Shown: piece by piece, positions 39,576 through 47,164 of the stretch
Numbering within the stretch: position 1 is the first letter of the stretch
How the letters are laid out: each line of letters starts with the position of its first letter
From: Fimbriimonadaceae bacterium
GTDB taxonomy: Bacteria; Armatimonadota; Fimbriimonadia; Fimbriimonadales; Fimbriimonadaceae
Direction: 5' to 3'
DNA: 64,000 nucleotides
Assembly: GCA_019638675.1 (NCBI GenBank)
Contig: JAHBTE010000001.1
Location: 1,830,605-1,894,604, forward strand
Notes under the pieces: generated by a model
Seen by the model: the letters and a program-made list of their open reading frames with translations, nothing else
Told to the model about the DNA's origin: nothing
The model's database searches: none
Translations under genes and position numbers: made by a program

Positions 39576-39905
39576 GTGAAAGTTTTGTTTGTCCAGCCAG
39601 AATTGGAGTTTTTGAAGGAGCGTCTCAGCGGGTTTAACGGCCTCACCGCGCGGGGGATGGGGCTGGATGGAAAAGGGCCGTCCACGATCATGCGCGAATC
39701 GCGGGATATGAAGTTCGACGTGGTGGTGACCACCGACCGCTCGCTGCGGTTCCCAATGGGATCAGAAGGCTGGACGTTCGGGATTCTGTTTTTGGAAATC
39801 TCTCCGCTGGACGAAGCGACGTTGACGGAACAACTGGATCGGATTCGGTCGGGGATTCTGGGGGCAAGGGTCGGCGAAGTTTCTACCGTCCGCTGGCCTC
39901 GGTAA
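39576..39905 (+). CDS. Small protein, possibly DUF5615/PIN-like
   Basis: The 109-residue product starts with GTG and reads KVLFVQPELEFLKERL, then MKFDVVVTTDRSLRFP and GWTFGILFLEISPLDE. The order of an N-terminal strand with helix and then a TTD strand turn resembles the DUF5615 PIN-like family, which includes toxin-like proteins, but the first Asp expected near residue 6 is missing. No antitoxin gene is adjacent. Treat as hypothetical. Confidence 0.5.
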   Translation: MKVLFVQPELEFLKERLSGFNGLTARGMGLDGKGPSTIMRESRDMKFDVVVTTDRSLRFPMGSEGWTFGILFLEISPLDEATLTEQLDRIRSGILGARVGEVSTVRWPR

Positions 39906-39925
39906 GACATATTGACCAATTCGCT

Positions 39926-41179
39926 TTATTTTATGAGAACGATTTGATTTAGATCAGTCCCACCAAATCCCCTTAACACATGATCAGCATCAAGTCCACG
40001 AACATCATCATTCATTGTGTTAAAACGTTTGCAATTAAGCAAGTCTATAAACTCAAGAGCCTGATCTTTTGAGATTGATGTATTGTTGACAATTTTTCTA
40101 ATAAGTTGCAACTGCAATTCTGTAGTGCAATCTTCATAATCATGCTTACACCCTAGTAGTCTGTGATAATAAGAAAACCAGGTTTGAAGAAATGTTCCTG
40201 CTTTCAGAAACGCCAAATCAAAGCTAGTGTTACTATCCAAAATCTCAGTTATATGTTTTCTAAAATGATCACTCTTGGAATTTGGTATTGATCTCGTCCC
40301 TTCGTCTGCGAAGTGTATACCAAGGAAAAGGAAGCCCTCAGCGGTAGAACCATTACGAGCACTCTTTTGCCCAGATTTATAGTATTCAATACTCAAATTA
40401 TCTAGAAGCTCAGTAAGTAGAGATTCGGCTTTTGTGGATTGACATTGAGACTCAGTTAAAACTACTATATCATCCACATACCTGATGTAGCCTGGAAATT
40501 CGCGACTCATTGTATCGTCGACGTCCTTTAAAAAGCAGGCCGCCAAATATGGAGCAATAGTAGTGCCTTGAAAGATGCCGTAGGCTCGTGGCCAGAATCT
40601 TTTGTAGTTATGATTTGAGACACCTTTAGATTGACCTGGCCGTTTTGTAAAAGGGTCGATTAGTTTGCAAATTCTTTCCGGAATTCCATCCCAACCCAGG
40701 CGCTCAAACAGTAGGTGCTTGCGTATACTAGGATAATAGTTCTTGAGGTCAGTTTCATAAACGAATTTATTTTGTTTGCACAGATGGCTGACCTTTTGGC
40801 AACAGGCACGTACATCGAATGATTTATCGTTTGTGGAGCGGCTAACACCATACGCATTAGCGTGAATTGTAGGAAAATGACTAGTTAGGACTCTAGTAAT
40901 AACTCGTTGAAATACCAAATCTGTTACGCTTTGTCTTGTAACACCACGGGACTTCATTGTACCATCTTGGCGTTCCTGCCTAATTATTTTTGAAGAGAAT
41001 GACGGCTGGTATATACCAGATAGTAATTTTTCTACACTATTATTTAGTGAGCTTACTGTTAACTTTGAAAGAACTTCTCTTGATTGAGTAAATTTTTCTT
41101 TTCTTAATAATACTATCTCATTTTGAAAGACTGGTAGGGCGAATACATTGTCAAAGTCGAACAAATTACGCCCTATCAA
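39926..41179 (-). CDS. Orphan reverse transcriptase
   Basis: The 417-residue protein has the RT core in order: an N-terminal finger region (KSRGVTRQSVTDLVFQRVI, residues 77-95), motif A ETDLKNYYPSI (142-152), the motif GIFQGTTIAPYLAACFL (201-217), the catalytic YIRYVDDIVVL (231-241), FLFLGIHF (283-290) and a thumb-like tail with FLQTWFSYYHRL. It lacks an HNH endonuclease and a clear group II maturase domain, and no intron boundaries are seen. Motifs do not fit retron or DGR enzymes well, so it is likely a group II-like or 'unknown group' defence-type RT. The DNA is A+T-richer than its neighbours. The start is TTG, coupled to a ten-codon upstream ORF. Confidence 0.88.
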   Translation of the reverse strand: MIGRNLFDFDNVFALPVFQNEIVLLRKEKFTQSREVLSKLTVSSLNNSVEKLLSGIYQPSFSSKIIRQERQDGTMKSRGVTRQSVTDLVFQRVITRVLTSHFPTIHANAYGVSRSTNDKSFDVRACCQKVSHLCKQNKFVYETDLKNYYPSIRKHLLFERLGWDGIPERICKLIDPFTKRPGQSKGVSNHNYKRFWPRAYGIFQGTTIAPYLAACFLKDVDDTMSREFPGYIRYVDDIVVLTESQCQSTKAESLLTELLDNLSIEYYKSGQKSARNGSTAEGFLFLGIHFADEGTRSIPNSKSDHFRKHITEILDSNTSFDLAFLKAGTFLQTWFSYYHRLLGCKHDYEDCTTELQLQLIRKIVNNTSISKDQALEFIDLLNCKRFNTMNDDVRGLDADHVLRGFGGTDLNQIVLIK

Positions 41180-41208
41180 TTTTGGTGGTAGGCCAAGCTT
41201 ATCTGCAT
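41176..41208 (-). other. Ten-codon ORF coupled to the reverse transcriptase start
   Basis: ATG 41208 opens a frame encoding MQISLAYHQN and ending in a TGA that shares three bases with the RT start TTG (TTGA). The gmhA gene uses the same TTGA overlap. It could translationally couple RT synthesis to a short leader. It may also be chance, since the ORF is very short. Confidence 0.35.
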
Positions 41209-41565
41209 TACACCCGGCCCGCCAGCGACAGATTGTTCATCTGTCAATTTTGTGATCTTGATTTTTACTTTCATTTTGTTTTTCAACTTATTATTGCTCC
41301 TAGTATGGCGAATAACGTTTTTATTGTAATCGTAACTGCAGTAATTAGTCTTACGACGCTAAAGCATTTACCCAGGTTGCATCGAAGTTTAATCTCAATC
41401 GACATGAACCATGCCGAAATAATTTGGCATGAGCATTTTGCCAGTAATCCAGCGTCCTGCTTCTCGTTCAACCTAAAGGTACGCGAAAAACGGCGAAGGG
41501 TTGTGACCGTTAGGGATAAATACCTGTTAATTATTGCAGGACAGAATTTACTTTCTGTCTACAAA
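41180..41565. other. Structured, A+T-rich region without a gene between ispG and the reverse transcriptase
   Basis: No convincing gene lies in this 386-base stretch. It holds three hairpins: GACAGAT/ATCTGTC at 41227-41245, ATGCC/GGCAT extended by A-T pairs at 41411-41430, and GACAGAA/TTCTGTC at 41540-41559. The first and last share the GACAGA/TCTGTC stem and bracket the segment. One plus-strand frame is free of stops across the whole stretch (about 128 codons). It sits directly upstream of the RT on the RT strand, where RT-associated template RNAs are usually encoded. Confidence 0.45.
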
Positions 41566-42837
41566 TTACACCAGACTTGGTTCACTCCAAACCCCATCCG
41601 CCTTCAGAAGGTTCACCAATTCTTCTACGCCGTGCTCCTGAGGGATGCCGGACTTGACGACATCTCTTTTCCGATAAAGCGTGATTTTGCCTCCCGCCGC
41701 GCCGACATAGCCGTAATCGGCGTCAGCCATTTCGCCCGGGCCGTTGACAATACAGCCCATCACCGCGATATCCAGCCCCTTGAGGTGGCGCGTGGCGTTG
41801 CGAACCTTGTTCAGCACGCTCGGAAGATCGAACTTGGTGCGCCCGCAACTGGGGCAGGCGATGTATTCCACCTGGGTTTTGCGCAGGTTCATGGCCTGCA
41901 GAATCTCGTAACACGCGGGGATTTCGTTGATCGGGTCTTCGCTCAGGCTCACCCGAATCGTGTCGCCGATTCCTTCTGCGAGCAGGGTAGCGATCCCGGC
42001 GGTGGACTTGATTCGCGCATATTGCCCGTCGCCGGCTTCGGTCACGCCGAGGTGGAGCGGGTAGTTCATGCCTTCTTCATCCAGGCGCATCGCCATCATG
42101 CGGTTGGCGGCAATCATCACGGGTACTCGGCTGGCCTTGGCGGAGATGTTGAGATTGAAGTAGCCATGCTTTTCGCAGATACGAAGGTATTCGAGAGCTG
42201 ATTCCACCAGCCCGCGTGGAGTGTCGCCGTAGGTGATGAGAATTCGTTCGGAAAGCGAACCGTGGTTCACCCCCACACGCATGGCCCGGTCGAATTTTTT
42301 GCAGGCTTCAACAACCGGAACGAAGTCTTCTTCTATCGCGGCGATCTCGTTATTCCATTCGGTTTCCGAATAAGCAAGTTGCGACCGGAGTGCTTCTACA
42401 CTGGTTAAATCTTCTTCCGTTCGGCCTCGCATATCACCGTTGTCTGTGCCGGTTTGCTCGCCACGCGAACCGTGCCGCTTGAACACAAACAGGCCGGGAT
42501 TGACCCGGATTTCATCCACGTATTTGGCGGCTTCAATCGCGATTTTGGTGCCTTGGTGGTGCACGTCGGCGGTCATCGGAACATCTTCGTGCTGTTCACG
42601 CACTTTGGCTTTGATTTCTTCCAGGCAACTCGCTTCGCCGAGGGTGGGAGTAGTGACGCGGACGATTTCTGATCCCGCTTTGTGGAGGGCGATGATCTGC
42701 TCGACGCATGCTTCGATGTTGCGGGTTTCTTCGGTGATCATGCTCTGAACCACCACCGGGTGCCCGTTGCCCATGGTGATGTTGCCCACTCGGCAAGGTT
42801 TCGTGGCGCGGCGCGGGTAGGTGACGTCGAGGTTCAT
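41566..42837 (-). CDS. ispG: 4-hydroxy-3-methylbut-2-enyl diphosphate synthase
   Basis: IspG (GcpE) performs the penultimate step of the MEP isoprenoid pathway with a 4Fe-4S cluster. The 423-residue protein shows [22 protein letters not shown] at the start, [38 protein letters not shown], and the cluster ligands in [12 protein letters not shown] near 330 and [11 protein letters not shown] near 363. It has the two-domain bacterial length with a small insertion near residue 130. Confidence 0.96.
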
Positions 42838-42900
42838 CGCGTAGCTATTAGTTTATACGGTCTGAGCCGAGAGGTGTTGTTGAGTCCCTGTGCGGTCTTA

Positions 42901-42940
42901 CCTCACCCCCAACCCCCTCTCCATTAAAACGGAGAGGGGG
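42901..42940. repeat. CCTCACCCCC hairpin repeat, copy 2
   Basis: CCTCACCCCC precedes the stem CCCCCTCTCC (42913-42922) and GGAGAGGGGG (42931-42940) around ATTAAAAC, followed by CTTTTATTTC. It lies in the 220-base gap between ispG and the DUF899 gene together with a second palindrome. Confidence 0.7.
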
Positions 42941-42950
42941 CTTTTATTTC

Positions 42951-42970
42951 CCTCCCCAATTCTGGGGAGG
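42951..42970. repeat. CCTCCCCA...TGGGGAGG palindrome
   Basis: Arms CCTCCCCA and TGGGGAGG flank ATTC, identical to the core at 35536. A weaker relative with TCTCCCAA lies near 43027-43047. Confidence 0.65.
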
Positions 42971-43057
42971 GGCTAAAGTTTGCAACTCCCTTCCTTCGCT
43001 TTGCAAAGTAGGGGCACCGTTTGTTTTCTCCCAATCCCAAGGGAGGAAGCTTTGACC

Positions 43058-43758: not shown

Positions 43759-44340
43759 TTACTTGAGCGGGTCTTGAGGTTGGAGATAATCGGCTGGCCA
43801 CAGCTTAACGCCCTTGCGGTCAAACTGACCCTGAAAAGCTTGGGCAACTTTATCGAAATCTTTTAGCTTGATTCTTTTTGTGCCGGAATCTGCAAAGGCA
43901 ATGATCCATTCTGGATTCTTGCCAGTCAGGTAAGAACTCCACATCGCAATCTCATTAACATTTTGCGCCTTTGAACCATGATAGGCAGGTAAAAGTGCGC
44001 CATCCACTCCGGCAAGGTTAAAGTTGAATTGCGGCGTAGTTGATATATCTTCAACAGGTTTAAATAAATCATGATTCTTTGTGTAAGGCTCTAGCACGAC
44101 TCGTACTGCTGGCATTCCCGAAGCTGGTGGATAGAGATCGTCGTAATCGGCTTGATAGATTATTGTGCCAGTAGCTATCTGCTTAACGTTAATTAGTGCC
44201 CGAATTCTCTTGCCATTTGAATGATCATGTGGGAGTATTGAGGGCAAAACGAGTAGCGCTGAAATTCCGATCATGATTAACGAGATCAGAATTACTGTCC
44301 AGATCGATATTTCTCCAGATTTTAGCGTCGTTTGTTTCAC
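43759..44340 (-). CDS. Paralogue array member 6 (last), membrane-anchored protein
   Basis: The 193-residue protein has an N-terminal membrane helix (about 12-33) and an external part with the array consensus: NVKQIATGTIIYQADYDDLYPPAS near 48-72, PQFNFNLAGVDGAL near 104-117, and a C-terminal QFDRKGVKLWPADYLQPQDPLK. The layout resembles H-X9-DG/pseudopilin-type exported proteins of the Armatimonadota and Planctomycetes, but the GFTLIE-type prepilin cleavage site is absent. Its start overlaps the stop of the previous gene (ATGA). Function unknown. Confidence 0.78.
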   Translation of the reverse strand: MKQTTLKSGEISIWTVILISLIMIGISALLVLPSILPHDHSNGKRIRALINVKQIATGTIIYQADYDDLYPPASGMPAVRVVLEPYTKNHDLFKPVEDISTTPQFNFNLAGVDGALLPAYHGSKAQNVNEIAMWSSYLTGKNPEWIIAFADSGTKRIKLKDFDKVAQAFQGQFDRKGVKLWPADYLQPQDPLK

Positions 44341-44915
44341 TTTTTCTCCTTCTGCTGGTCATGGTCTGGGAGGTAGTCAGGTGGGAAAAGCTTGACTCCT
44401 TTTCGGTCGAATTGATACGCAAGATGACGGAGAAAATCGGTTTCGTTAAGGGAGTAGGACTCGGAGTATCTTAGAAATTTGCTTCCAATATCCACGCCAA
44501 ATACCTTGTTCAGTTCTAAATCAGAAATATAGAAAACCACGACCTCATTGGTTTCAATTGACTTATATCCGAATGGGGAAAGAACGTTTTCTGAACTCAC
44601 TCCTGCTAAGTTAAAGTTGAAGTGTGGCTCCGAGAAGTTTTCCGCAGCTTGCCAGCTTATGTCGCTTGATTTGCCAGACGCGTAAGGTTGCAGTAGCGCC
44701 CGGACTGTTGCCATCGATGAAGCGGGCATGAACACACCCTCAAAATCGTTCATGTACAAGGAATTTGCATTGGAAAGGTTCCGTAACTGGAGCCTAGCTT
44801 GATTAGATCGAGCCGCCGATTTGGCACTTCTGAAAATATGCGGCATATCCGTTACGAAGAACAAGATTGTAGCGATGCCAACAAACCAGAGTAAGAATTT
44901 GAGAAAAGGTTTCAT
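44337..44915 (-). CDS. Paralogue array member 5, membrane-anchored protein
   Basis: The 192-residue protein is a diverged copy: N-terminal helix near 5-22, LRNLSNANSLYMNDFEGVFMPASSMATVRALLQPYA near 45-80, PHFNFNLAGVSSENVLSPFG, and the C-terminal YQFDRKGVKLFPPDYLPDHDQQKEKK. The QIA...DYDD core is weakest in this copy, while the FNFNLAGV and DRKGV...PDYL blocks are kept, so those are probably the structural core. Confidence 0.76.
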   Translation of the reverse strand: MKPFLKFLLWFVGIATILFFVTDMPHIFRSAKSAARSNQARLQLRNLSNANSLYMNDFEGVFMPASSMATVRALLQPYASGKSSDISWQAAENFSEPHFNFNLAGVSSENVLSPFGYKSIETNEVVVFYISDLELNKVFGVDIGSKFLRYSESYSLNETDFLRHLAYQFDRKGVKLFPPDYLPDHDQQKEKK

Positions 44916-45490
44916 TTAAGGGGATCCTTGTTGGCAAGATAGTTGGGTGGGAAGAGCTTGGCACCCTTTCGATCATATTGATAGGAGAGCCTTCGGAAAA
45001 ACTCTGAGTTAACGTCGTTTCCGTTCTTACTGCCGCCCAAATACCACTTAAGTCTGGAATCCCGTCCCCAACCGCATGTCGCATACCGATTTTCTTTTGT
45101 ATCAAAAATGTAACACACAATTGGTTCTTCGGAGAGAAATTCGTAACCCAGTGGGTCGGGAAGTGAACTATACGAAAGCTCAACGCCGGCAAGATTGAAG
45201 TTGAATTGCACTTCAGAATAGCCCTTATCTGATTTCCAATTGTGATCAGTTTTTTCGTAAGGTGAAAGCAGTGCTCGGAATGTTGGCATAGATGATGCCG
45301 CAGGCAATCGGTCATCATAGTCGCTGGCATAAATTTGGATAGATTTTTGAAGTGACCAAAAAATCCTGTGGGGATACACTTGCCGGTTTGCCGCCCGGGC
45401 ACTGGCAAAAAGATGGAATCCTTCGAACCCGCAAATTCCTACGACGCAGGTAAGCAGTGTCCAGCCAACAATTTTGAGCAGTCGGTTCAT
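44912..45490 (-). CDS. Paralogue array member 4, membrane-anchored protein
   Basis: The 192-residue copy has a membrane helix near 7-25, SLQKSIQIYASDYDDRLPAASSMPTFRALLSPYEKT near 45-80, VQFNFNLAGVELSYSSLPDPLG and the C-terminal YQYDRKGAKLFPPNYLANKDPLK. It is coupled to its neighbours by ATGA overlaps on both sides. Confidence 0.76.
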   Translation of the reverse strand: MNRLLKIVGWTLLTCVVGICGFEGFHLFASARAANRQVYPHRIFWSLQKSIQIYASDYDDRLPAASSMPTFRALLSPYEKTDHNWKSDKGYSEVQFNFNLAGVELSYSSLPDPLGYEFLSEEPIVCYIFDTKENRYATCGWGRDSRLKWYLGGSKNGNDVNSEFFRRLSYQYDRKGAKLFPPNYLANKDPLK

Positions 45491-46059
45491 TTGTTCTCCT
45501 TCAATGGGTCTTGGTCGGCAAGATAGTCGGGCGGCAAAAGCTGGATTCCTTTTCGGTCGAATTGCGGGGCCAACAGATTCTGATATTCAGCGTGCTTTGC
45601 TGCTGGATAGAACTTCACCGAAGAATCAGCATGAGCGACAAGAAAGCCATAAGGAGCAGCAACTACGGCTGAGTACCAAATCGCCACTTCGTTCGGTTCA
45701 CGTTGCTCCGTGCCTGGAAACGGTGGCAGGGTGTTCTTCACTCCCGCGAGATTGAAGTTAAACTGAGGGATAGTAGTATATTTTTTGTAGGGCAAAAAGC
45801 TTTCCTTTCTCTTCACATAAGAATTCAGTTGTGCTCGGAGAGTTAGCATGCTGGATGCAAGGGGGAAAGTCTCATCATTATCGATTGCGTAAATTATTAT
45901 TGCGGTTGCTATTTGTTTTTGGTTAGAAAGGCATTGGGTTTTGGATGCAACCGTGTGCCCAGTCAGCATTGGCCCAGCGATCCAAGCCACTACTGGAATC
46001 AGAATGATGGCGACGACTACGATTGCGGTTAAATCTCGTTTGCTAATAAGGCTGTTCAT
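45487..46059 (-). CDS. Paralogue array member 3, membrane-anchored protein
   Basis: The 190-residue copy has a helix near 10-30, CLSNQKQIATAIIIYAIDNDETFPLASSMLTLRAQLNSYVK near 42-83 (the form closest to the pseudopilin-type CxSNxKQI), PQFNFNLAGVKNTLPPFPGTEQ and PQFDRKGIQLLPPDYLADQDPLKENK. A short conserved middle block VAIWYSAVVAAPYGFLVAHADS corresponds in the other copies. Confidence 0.77.
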   Translation of the reverse strand: MNSLISKRDLTAIVVVAIILIPVVAWIAGPMLTGHTVASKTQCLSNQKQIATAIIIYAIDNDETFPLASSMLTLRAQLNSYVKRKESFLPYKKYTTIPQFNFNLAGVKNTLPPFPGTEQREPNEVAIWYSAVVAAPYGFLVAHADSSVKFYPAAKHAEYQNLLAPQFDRKGIQLLPPDYLADQDPLKENK

Positions 46060-46622
46060 TTCATCTCCTTTAGCGGGTCTTGGTCGGCGAGGTAATCGGC
46101 AGGCATGAGAACAACGCCTCTGCGGTCGAATTGTCCTTCAAACAATGCGAGAACTTCGGCATATTTTTCTGGTCGGTAACTTTTAGCACTCGAATCTGCC
46201 CGGCTAACCACGATCCCCTTGTACTGTCCATAAACGTGATTGCTCCACACCGCGACTTCGGTGGGTTCCAGTTGCTTGGTTCCAGGGTAAGGCGTGAGTG
46301 CCGAAGTGACTCCGGCAACGTTGAAATTAAACTGCGGGCGGCCAAATCTTGATTCCCGGGAATCAAAGAATTGACTGTTCTTAATATAGGGCATGAGCAC
46401 CGCTCGAGTGCATGGCATTGCGCTGGTAGCAAGAAACCGCTCGTCGTAATCGGATTGATAGATAAGAGTTGTTATTGCGATTTGCTTGACATTGGATAAG
46501 GCGTAGGTTGTACTTGAAATACTAGGTTCCGATTGTATTGGAAAGACAAGAATGAGAACGAACGCAAGAATTACGGCAAATGCAAGTATTCCTGTGATGA
46601 CTTCTTTATAAGCTGAATTCAT
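46056..46622 (-). CDS. Paralogue array member 2, membrane-anchored protein
   Basis: The 188-residue copy has a helix near 8-29, ALSNVKQIAITTLIYQSDYDERFLATSAMPCTRAVLMPYIK near 41-81, PQFNFNVAGVTSALTPYPGTKQ and GQFDRRGVVLMPADYLADQDPLKEMK. It is most similar to member 3 and member 1 at its ends. Confidence 0.77.
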   Translation of the reverse strand: MNSAYKEVITGILAFAVILAFVLILVFPIQSEPSISSTTYALSNVKQIAITTLIYQSDYDERFLATSAMPCTRAVLMPYIKNSQFFDSRESRFGRPQFNFNVAGVTSALTPYPGTKQLEPTEVAVWSNHVYGQYKGIVVSRADSSAKSYRPEKYAEVLALFEGQFDRRGVVLMPADYLADQDPLKEMK

Positions 46623-47164
46623 TTCGTCTCCTTGAGTGGGTCTTGGTCTGCGAGGTAATCGGCGGGCATGAGAACAACGCCTCGCCTATCAAATTGTGGT
46701 TCTAACGCTTTTAACAATTCTAAGCTCGTGAGTGTGCCACGTCCGTTAGCTAAGTAATAGACAAAGAATTCATCCTGTTTTTTTGGATTCCGAGCCCATG
46801 TTACGATCACCCGACTTGGTTCTACTTTGATACTTCCAGGATAGGGAGGTGCACCCATCGAAACGCCAGCAAGGTTGAAATTGAAGTTGGCTTTTCCTGC
46901 GTGTATCCCCGGTTCATAGACTGTCTTATTTTTGACATATTCATAAGTAAGTGCTCGGAGAGTCTTTTCGGAGGAGGCAGCAGGAAATGTATCGTCAAAG
47001 TCCGAAGCATAAATGATTAGAGCCGTAGCTAAGCTGGCGTATCGACTCTCGCTGCGATCCATCCCTTCATCTGCCACTTTGGGCTGGGCAAAAACCGGAA
47101 ACAGAAGTGCGCTAAGAACCCCAATTACTAAAACCCATACTAGAATGTGGCGGATCGTTGTCAT
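46619..47164 (-). CDS. Paralogue array member 1 (first), membrane-anchored protein
   Basis: The 181-residue first gene has a helix near 5-25 ending in FAQ, so it may be a cleaved signal peptide here rather than an anchor. It continues SLATALIIYASDFDDTFPAASSEKTLRALTYEYVK near 45-80, ANFNFNLAGVSMGAPPYPGSIK and PQFDRRGVVLMPADYLADQDPLKETK. AGGA lies six bases before its ATG. The array probably starts from a promoter in the 92-base gap after accA. Confidence 0.77.
   Translation of the reverse strand: MTTIRHILVWVLVIGVLSALLFPVFAQPKVADEGMDRSESRYASLATALIIYASDFDDTFPAASSEKTLRALTYEYVKNKTVYEPGIHAGKANFNFNLAGVSMGAPPYPGSIKVEPSRVIVTWARNPKKQDEFFVYYLANGRGTLTSLELLKALEPQFDRRGVVLMPADYLADQDPLKETK

What the first reader, a model, noticed from the sequence alone, without database searches (positions are those of the whole stretch)
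41180..41565. Hairpin-bracketed, stop-free region upstream of the reverse transcriptase
Seen: hairpins at 41227-41245 and 41540-41559 share the GACAGA/TCTGTC stem and bracket the gap; another hairpin lies at 41411-41430; one plus-strand frame runs about 128 codons without a stop through A+T-rich DNA, though no gene is convincing there. Known: retron msr/msd and DRT2/DRT9 systems encode a template RNA directly upstream of the RT, and DRT2 template RNA yields a near-endless ORF after repeat cDNA synthesis. Inference: this could be the template RNA of the RT.
Basis: partly seen in the sequence, partly recalled or inferred. Interest (0 to 1): 0.7.

Follow-up and report, generated by a model that had tools for sequence, protein, structure and literature searches.

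The report
Possible RNA partner of orphan RT
A 386-base non-coding stretch sits in front of a very unusual stand-alone bacterial reverse transcriptase and travelled into this genome together with it; it has the layout of phage-defence enzymes that copy their own RNA, but no close relatives exist to prove that it is the RNA they copy.

Summary
Two palindromes sharing a GACAGA/TCTGTC stem (41227-41245, 41540-41559) bracket the gap; 5 of 20,000 shuffles reproduce such a pair. The plus-strand frame is stop-free for 128 codons (p about 0.002). The gap and RT form one foreign 1.66-kb cassette (GC 0.385, flanks about 0.56). It fills, stop codon to stop codon, a site that carries other cargo, or almost nothing, in sister species. 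The RT is a stand-alone 417-aa enzyme outside every curated class (best relative 23-30% identical; best fold G2L4 RT; weak Class 2 UG scores).

The template-RNA reading is only partly supported. For: RT-only cassette plus upstream gap, the DRT2/DRT9 layout; a moderately stable fold at 41320-41560 (z -3.1); a strongly structured, strand-asymmetric RNA upstream of the closest RT relative (z about -5.5 to -6.4). Against: the window's fold is equally stable on both strands, structured 5' regions are common, no homologue of the gap exists, and the DRT2 template signature is absent. About 100 nt next to the RT may be a 32-codon leader ORF coupled to the RT start.

I favour an RT-associated ncRNA at 41290-41565 (confidence 0.42). 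Main rival: leader or operator DNA of an RT that needs no template RNA.

The parts
39906..41565 (.). Foreign cassette (gap + RT gene) filling the site between the stop codons of ispG and of a convergent 109-aa gene
   Evidence: GC 0.385 vs 0.558/0.572 in flanks; sister genome G003 matches up to 39903 and from 41567, with different DNA between; near-empty site in G004 and G005
39926..41179 (-). Stand-alone reverse transcriptase, 417 aa, YVDD, start probably TTG at 41179
   Evidence: Pfam RVT_1 46.4 bits; PADLOC UG4 99 / UG17 93 bits; best fold G2L4 RT Z 27.5; only RVT_1 match in the genome
41290..41565 (-). Candidate RT-associated non-coding RNA (structured part about 41320-41560)
   Evidence: 41320-41560: -64.7 kcal/mol, z -3.0/-3.1, 3/300 and 0/200 shuffles; but the + strand is equally stable (-66.5, z -3.3)
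41540..41559 (-). Palindrome/hairpin B, 7 bp, first stem of the RT-sense RNA
   Evidence: pair probability 0.69-1.0
41514..41525 (-). 5' arm of the long-range helix that pairs with 41362-41373
   Evidence: pair probabilities 0.58-0.99
41362..41373 (-). 3' arm of the same helix
41528..41539 (-). 5' arm of outer closing helix (11 of 12 complementary to 41336-41347)
   Evidence: I3; present in the minimum-energy fold; a 12-mer with at most 1 mismatch occurs in 15% of shuffles
41336..41347 (-). 3' arm of outer closing helix
41410..41431 (-).
   Evidence: I8; pair probability 0.52-0.65
41227..41245 (-). Palindrome/hairpin A, 7 bp, same stem as B; lies inside the leader ORF
   Evidence: pair probability 0.99-1.0
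41184..41226 (-). Hairpin just upstream of the RT start (-17.2 kcal/mol)
   Evidence: not significant against its own shuffles (p 0.19); the G028 and G012 equivalents are (0.000, 0.005)
41176..41274 (-). Possible 32-codon leader ORF MKVKIKITKLTDEQSVAGGPGVMQISLAYHQN whose TGA overlaps the RT's TTG start (TTGA); alternative start TTG 41286 with AGGAG 10 nt upstream
   Evidence: codon score 0.158, best of six frames, p 0.01; no Pfam match
41305..41565 (+). Stop-free plus-strand frame (open from 41092 to 42198), antisense to the RT; hydrophobic start MANNVFIVIVTAVISL
   Evidence: p 0.0015-0.002; codon usage not cargo-like (p 0.86), amino-acid composition the best of six frames; no homologue

Best explanation
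The cassette is a two-part RT system: an orphan, stand-alone reverse transcriptase plus an RNA of roughly 240-275 nt made from 41290-41565 on the RT strand. That RNA would fold (hairpin B, a long-range helix 41514-41525/41362-41373, two inner hairpins), be bound by the RT and supply the template or cofactor for cDNA synthesis, most likely in phage defence. The RT would then be translated downstream, probably by coupling to a short leader ORF whose stop codon overlaps the RT's TTG start. Shown: the cassette, its mobility, the structure potential, the RT's fold class, and a structured RT-sense RNA in front of the closest RT relative. Inferred: transcription of the RNA, its binding by the RT, its use as template, and the defence role.
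For: The gap and RT share composition and boundaries: 1.66 kb with GC 0.385 between flanks of 0.56-0.57, exactly between two stop codons, replaced by other cargo or almost nothing in sister genomes. The other cargo includes a DUF433+DUF5615 pair, a DUF6119 protein and a Y1 transposase-like gene, so this is a variable spot. In the family the RT and the gap occur only here, so 386 nt of sequence came with a single RT gene. DRT2 and DRT9 are RT-only proteins with an upstream ncRNA of 280 and 188 nt (PMC12489045), and Class 2 UG RTs use ncRNA templates (PMC12632851; PMC13174585). Region 41320-41560 has z -3.0/-3.1. The nearest RT (G028, L041) has upstream RNA of -97.1 kcal/mol, z -5.5, versus -63.8, z -1.5 on the other strand. 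That asymmetry resembles the one in front of a group II intron RT used as control. No group II intron RNA is present here or at the closest relatives, though Rfam found it in two true introns of the same set. Paired palindromes: 5/20,000.
Against: The window's fold is as stable on the + strand as on the RT strand. 24% of 42 control upstream regions reach z -2.5 or lower, and the 300 nt directly upstream of the RT score only -1.2 to -1.7. The second relative (G012) shows no excess structure (z -0.8). No homologue of the gap exists in 85 family genomes, plasmids or phages, so nothing tests covariation. No sigma-70-like promoter was found on the minus strand. By fold, and by the three-sequence profile, the RT is nearest to G2L4, a repair RT not known to use a dedicated RNA.
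Confidence: 0.42

Rival explanations
1. Leader and control DNA of an RT that needs no dedicated RNA (G2L4-like DNA-repair or other host role). The palindromes are operator sites or attenuator hairpins, and 41176-41286 is a short leader ORF translationally coupled to the RT start.
For: G2L4 is the best sequence match of the three-sequence profile in the PDB (E 1e-28) and the best fold (Z 27.5). The leader ORF has cargo-like codon usage, p 0.01, an AGGAG 10 nt before an in-frame TTG, and a TGA/TTG overlap with the RT. Two near-identical palindromes suit a dimeric regulator.
Against: 386 nt is long for a leader; the closest RT relative has a strongly structured, strand-asymmetric upstream RNA; G2L4's active site is YIDD (PMC12337344), here YVDD; no regulator gene lies in the cassette; the leader peptide has no relative.
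Confidence: 0.27
2. DRT2-type reading: the RNA is copied repeatedly and the antisense (plus) strand of the concatemer carries a near-endless ORF translated into an effector.
For: The stop-free frame is on the strand antisense to the RT, as neo is to its ncRNA (PMC12039810); p 0.0015-0.002; its amino-acid composition is the best of six frames.
Against: No ACA-bounded template of a length divisible by three rebuilds a sigma-70 promoter at the junction. The RT scores 28 bits against Drt2 (cut-off 390). In G028 and G012 the antisense frames are no longer than chance. DRT2's template is only about 120 nt, so a 128-codon open run is not predicted.
Confidence: 0.1
3. The plus frame is the remains of a protein gene (start near ATG 41305, hydrophobic N-terminus) cut off at the ispG junction when cargo was exchanged. 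The gap is then scrap DNA, not an RNA gene.
For: Stop-free frame, purines at codon position 1 and low G at position 2; weak PHROG 33652 match, E 0.005; sister genomes hold broken ispG ends at this spot, so alleles are cut and joined here.
Against: No ribosome site before ATG 41305, codon usage unlike the cargo (p 0.86), no homologue in plasmids, phages or viral contigs.
Confidence: 0.13

Closest known systems
DRT2 and DRT9 (Class 2 UG reverse transcriptases)
   Same: RT-only protein with a few hundred nt of putative RNA directly upstream, in a mobile cassette; the open frame is on the strand that neo occupies in DRT2
   Different: RT scores far below the family cut-off (Drt2 28 of 390 bits); DRT2 template signature absent; no family ncRNA recognised by Rfam
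DRT10 (UG17)
   Same: UG17 is one of the two best PADLOC classes for this RT (93 bits) and for G028 (118 bits); YVDD active site
   Different: No SLATT gene in the cassette; the score is too low for membership
G2L4 reverse transcriptase (group II intron-like 4)
   Same: Best fold (Z 27.5, rmsd 3.7 over 354) and best profile match in the PDB; free-standing RT of similar length
   Different: 18% identity; YVDD, not YIDD; G2L4 works in end-joining repair without a dedicated RNA
Retrons (msr/msd + RT)
   Same: Structured RNA proposed directly upstream of the RT
   Different: RT lacks the VTG and NAxxH motifs; 417 aa, longer than typical; no msr/msd-like a1/a2 arrangement identified
Group II intron RNPs
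   Same: RT sequence and fold are group-II-like (GsI-IIC Z 26)
   Different: No intron RNA domains in Rfam scans; no maturase-level score

Membership tests
DRT2 | RT matches the Drt2 family model | tested here: not met
   NCBIfam Drt2 28.4 bits, cut-off 390
DRT2 | ncRNA template flanked by ACA, repeat junction rebuilding a promoter and an endless antisense ORF | tested here: not met
   0 ACA-bounded templates with a junction promoter; only the open antisense frame is present
DRT2 | Upstream structured ncRNA bound by the RT | tested here: inconclusive
   z -3.1 but strand-symmetric; binding not testable here
DRT9 | RT matches Drt9 | tested here: not met
   PADLOC Drt9 49.9 bits, well behind UG4 99 and UG17 93; fold Z 21.4 vs 27.5 for G2L4
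DRT10 (UG17) | UG17 RT next to a SLATT gene | tested here: not met
   UG17 93 bits over 241 residues; the cassette holds only the RT
Class 2 UG RTs in general | RT falls inside the UG Class 2 clade | tested here: inconclusive
   Long branch, no supported placement, nearest row 23% identical; no named UG reference sequences were in the tree
Class 2 UG RTs in general | ncRNA-templated repetitive cDNA | not testable with these tools
   needs RIP-seq and cDNA sequencing
Retron | VTG and NAxxH motifs and a retron RT model | tested here: not met
   both motifs absent; retron_St85 49 of 235 bits
G2L4 RT | YIDD active site | tested here: not met
   YVDD at residue 234; YIDD defined in PMC12337344
G2L4 RT | G2L4-like fold with NTE, fingers, palm, thumb | tested here: met
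   Z 27.5, rmsd 3.7 over 354 residues, model pLDDT 72.5; GII and DGR RTs are close behind, so not specific
Group II intron | Intron RNA domains around the RT | tested here: not met
   No Rfam match in 39900-41600 up to E 1; positive controls L064 and L144 matched

The most novel reading that the evidence does not exclude
A new, minimal RT/ncRNA defence module outside all named DRT and UG classes. An orphan G2L4/Class-2-like RT would use its own upstream RNA, bracketed by twin palindromes, to make a repetitive or otherwise defined cDNA whose antisense strand is open for translation.
Probability: 0.22. Interest if true: 0.72.

Novelty: new variant of a known kind. Interest (0 to 1): 0.45.

Why it matters
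Most free-standing bacterial RTs have no known template. A solo RT on its own small cassette, whose closest relative has a strongly structured RNA in the same place, would be a clean and small test case for whether RNA-templated cDNA synthesis extends beyond the known DRT classes towards the G2L4-like repair RTs.

Tried and rejected
Close homologues: none by peptide-pattern scans of genome contigs and viral contigs with the single RT. Profile scans gave only distant RTs, about 20-30% identical. Four other phyla were sampled in part, Bacteroidota and Acidobacteria without hits at E 1e-33; an empty answer there shows little. Covariation of the RNA therefore could not be tested, and no covariance model was built. 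Group II intron: rejected. Known RNA family: none. Hairpin directly before the RT start as a shared mark of three relatives: at first striking, but the window's hairpin is ordinary for its composition (p 0.19), so not used as evidence. Small protein upstream of the G028 RT, read by eye: not pursued, because the same DNA is the highly structured RNA. DRT2-like promoter pairs without the ACA rule are abundant but only reflect the open frame. Tree placement is unresolved because of long branches.

Full report
What was checked. The three hairpins and the stop-free frame are in the sequence at the stated coordinates. The pair of palindromes sharing GACAGA/TCTGTC is unlikely to be chance (5 of 20,000 dinucleotide shuffles) and occurs only in this gap. 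The 128-codon run on the plus strand is also unusual (p 0.0015), and it stays so when the part next to the RT is left out (p 0.002). The stop count of 41283-41558 is ordinary, yet one frame on each strand is fully open, which none of 5000 shuffles shows. Codon usage does not support the plus frame as a normal gene. Its amino-acid composition is the best of the six frames, but only slightly, and no homologue was found.

Surroundings. The RT gene is 41179-39926 on the minus strand, downstream of and co-directional with ispG (stop at 41566). A convergent 109-aa gene ends at 39905. Between the two stop codons lies 1.66 kb of DNA at GC 0.385, against 0.56-0.57 in the flanks. In the sister genome G003 the flanks match at 90% right up to the two stops, while the DNA between is different: a DUF433+DUF5615 pair, a 307-aa ORF, and duplicated ends of both flanking genes. 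G007 carries a DUF6119 protein there, G006 a Y1 transposase-like gene, and G004 and G005 are nearly empty. So the 386-nt gap came with the RT, and the spot is a cargo hotspot. Neither the RT nor the gap has a counterpart in the genus; the family holds only distant RTs.

The RT. It is 417 aa long with YVDD, RVT_1 46 bits, UG4 99 and UG17 93 bits, and is far below the cut-offs for Drt2, Drt3a, Drt4, retrons and group II maturases. The best relatives are G028 (30% over 228 aa) and G012 (24%). In a 43-row tree it is a long branch without supported placement. An AlphaFold2 model (pLDDT 72.5, pTM 0.74) matches G2L4 RT best (Z 27.5, rmsd 3.7, 354 residues), then GsI-IIC and DGR RTs, with DRT9 at 21.4 and DRT2 at 20.0. 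A profile of the three sequences also finds G2L4 first (E 1e-28). Retron motifs are absent. No intron RNA is present.

The gap as RNA. Read in the RT sense, 41320-41560 folds at -64.7 kcal/mol, z -3.0 to -3.1. The fold has hairpin B, a long-range helix 41514-41525/41362-41373 with pair probabilities up to 0.99, and inner hairpins. The plus strand folds equally well (-66.5), so the signal does not name a strand, and about a quarter of control upstream regions reach z -2.5. The strongest outside support is G028: 292 nt upstream of its RT fold at -97.1 (z -5.5) in the RT sense but only -63.8 (z -1.5) in the other. This mark of a real RNA is comparable to a group II intron control. G012 shows nothing of the kind. 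The stretch next to the window's RT may instead be a short leader ORF: 32 codons from ATG 41274, with a TGA overlapping the RT's TTG, and cargo-like codon usage (p 0.01).

Mechanism. Most likely (0.42) the RT works with an RNA from 41290-41565, as Class 2 systems DRT2, DRT3a, DRT9 and DRT10 do (PMC12039810, PMC13174585, PMC12489045, PMC12632851), and the leader ORF couples RT translation. The transcript, its binding and its use as a template are inferred. A plain leader with operators before a template-free RT (0.27), a truncated plus-strand gene (0.13) and a DRT2-type endless ORF (0.10) are the rivals. The DRT2-type reading has the right strand and an open frame, but the ACA/junction-promoter signature is absent and the RT is not a Drt2 protein. 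The remaining probability is chance or something else.

Verdict.

Noticed in passing
39906-41565; L033 6241-8016; L035 4770-6850; L034 6655-7616; L037; L039: Cargo hotspot between the stop codons of ispG and a convergent 109-aa gene: different genes or almost nothing in each species of the genus. G003 shows a tandem join of two alleles with duplicated ends of both flanking genes.
   Followed up: partly
L041 8469-8760 (minus strand): 292 nt upstream of the G028 RT fold far better than shuffles and only in the RT sense (z -5.5 vs -1.5): a strong candidate for an unreported RT-associated RNA.
   Followed up: partly
L080 upstream of 3575; L092 upstream of 3611: Two other RTs (Nomurabacteria; Hanstruepera) have strongly structured RT-sense upstream RNA (z about -6 and -8).
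   Followed up: no
L042 8670-8832, 9069-9230, 8840-8908, 9294-9362: The G012 RT is preceded by a 90+69-nt direct repeat, with a 69-nt inverted repeat close by; looks like a small mobile element or duplicated RNA.
   Followed up: no
41283-41558: One frame on each strand is stop-free although the number of stop codons is ordinary (0 of 5000 shuffles).
   Followed up: partly
43759-47164: Six tandem minus-strand paralogues of about 181-193 aa sharing FNFNLAGV and QFDRRGV.LMPADYLADQDPLK-like endings.
   Followed up: no
42800-42999: Very stable fold (z -5.3) just upstream of ispG, in a GC-rich repeat region.
   Followed up: no
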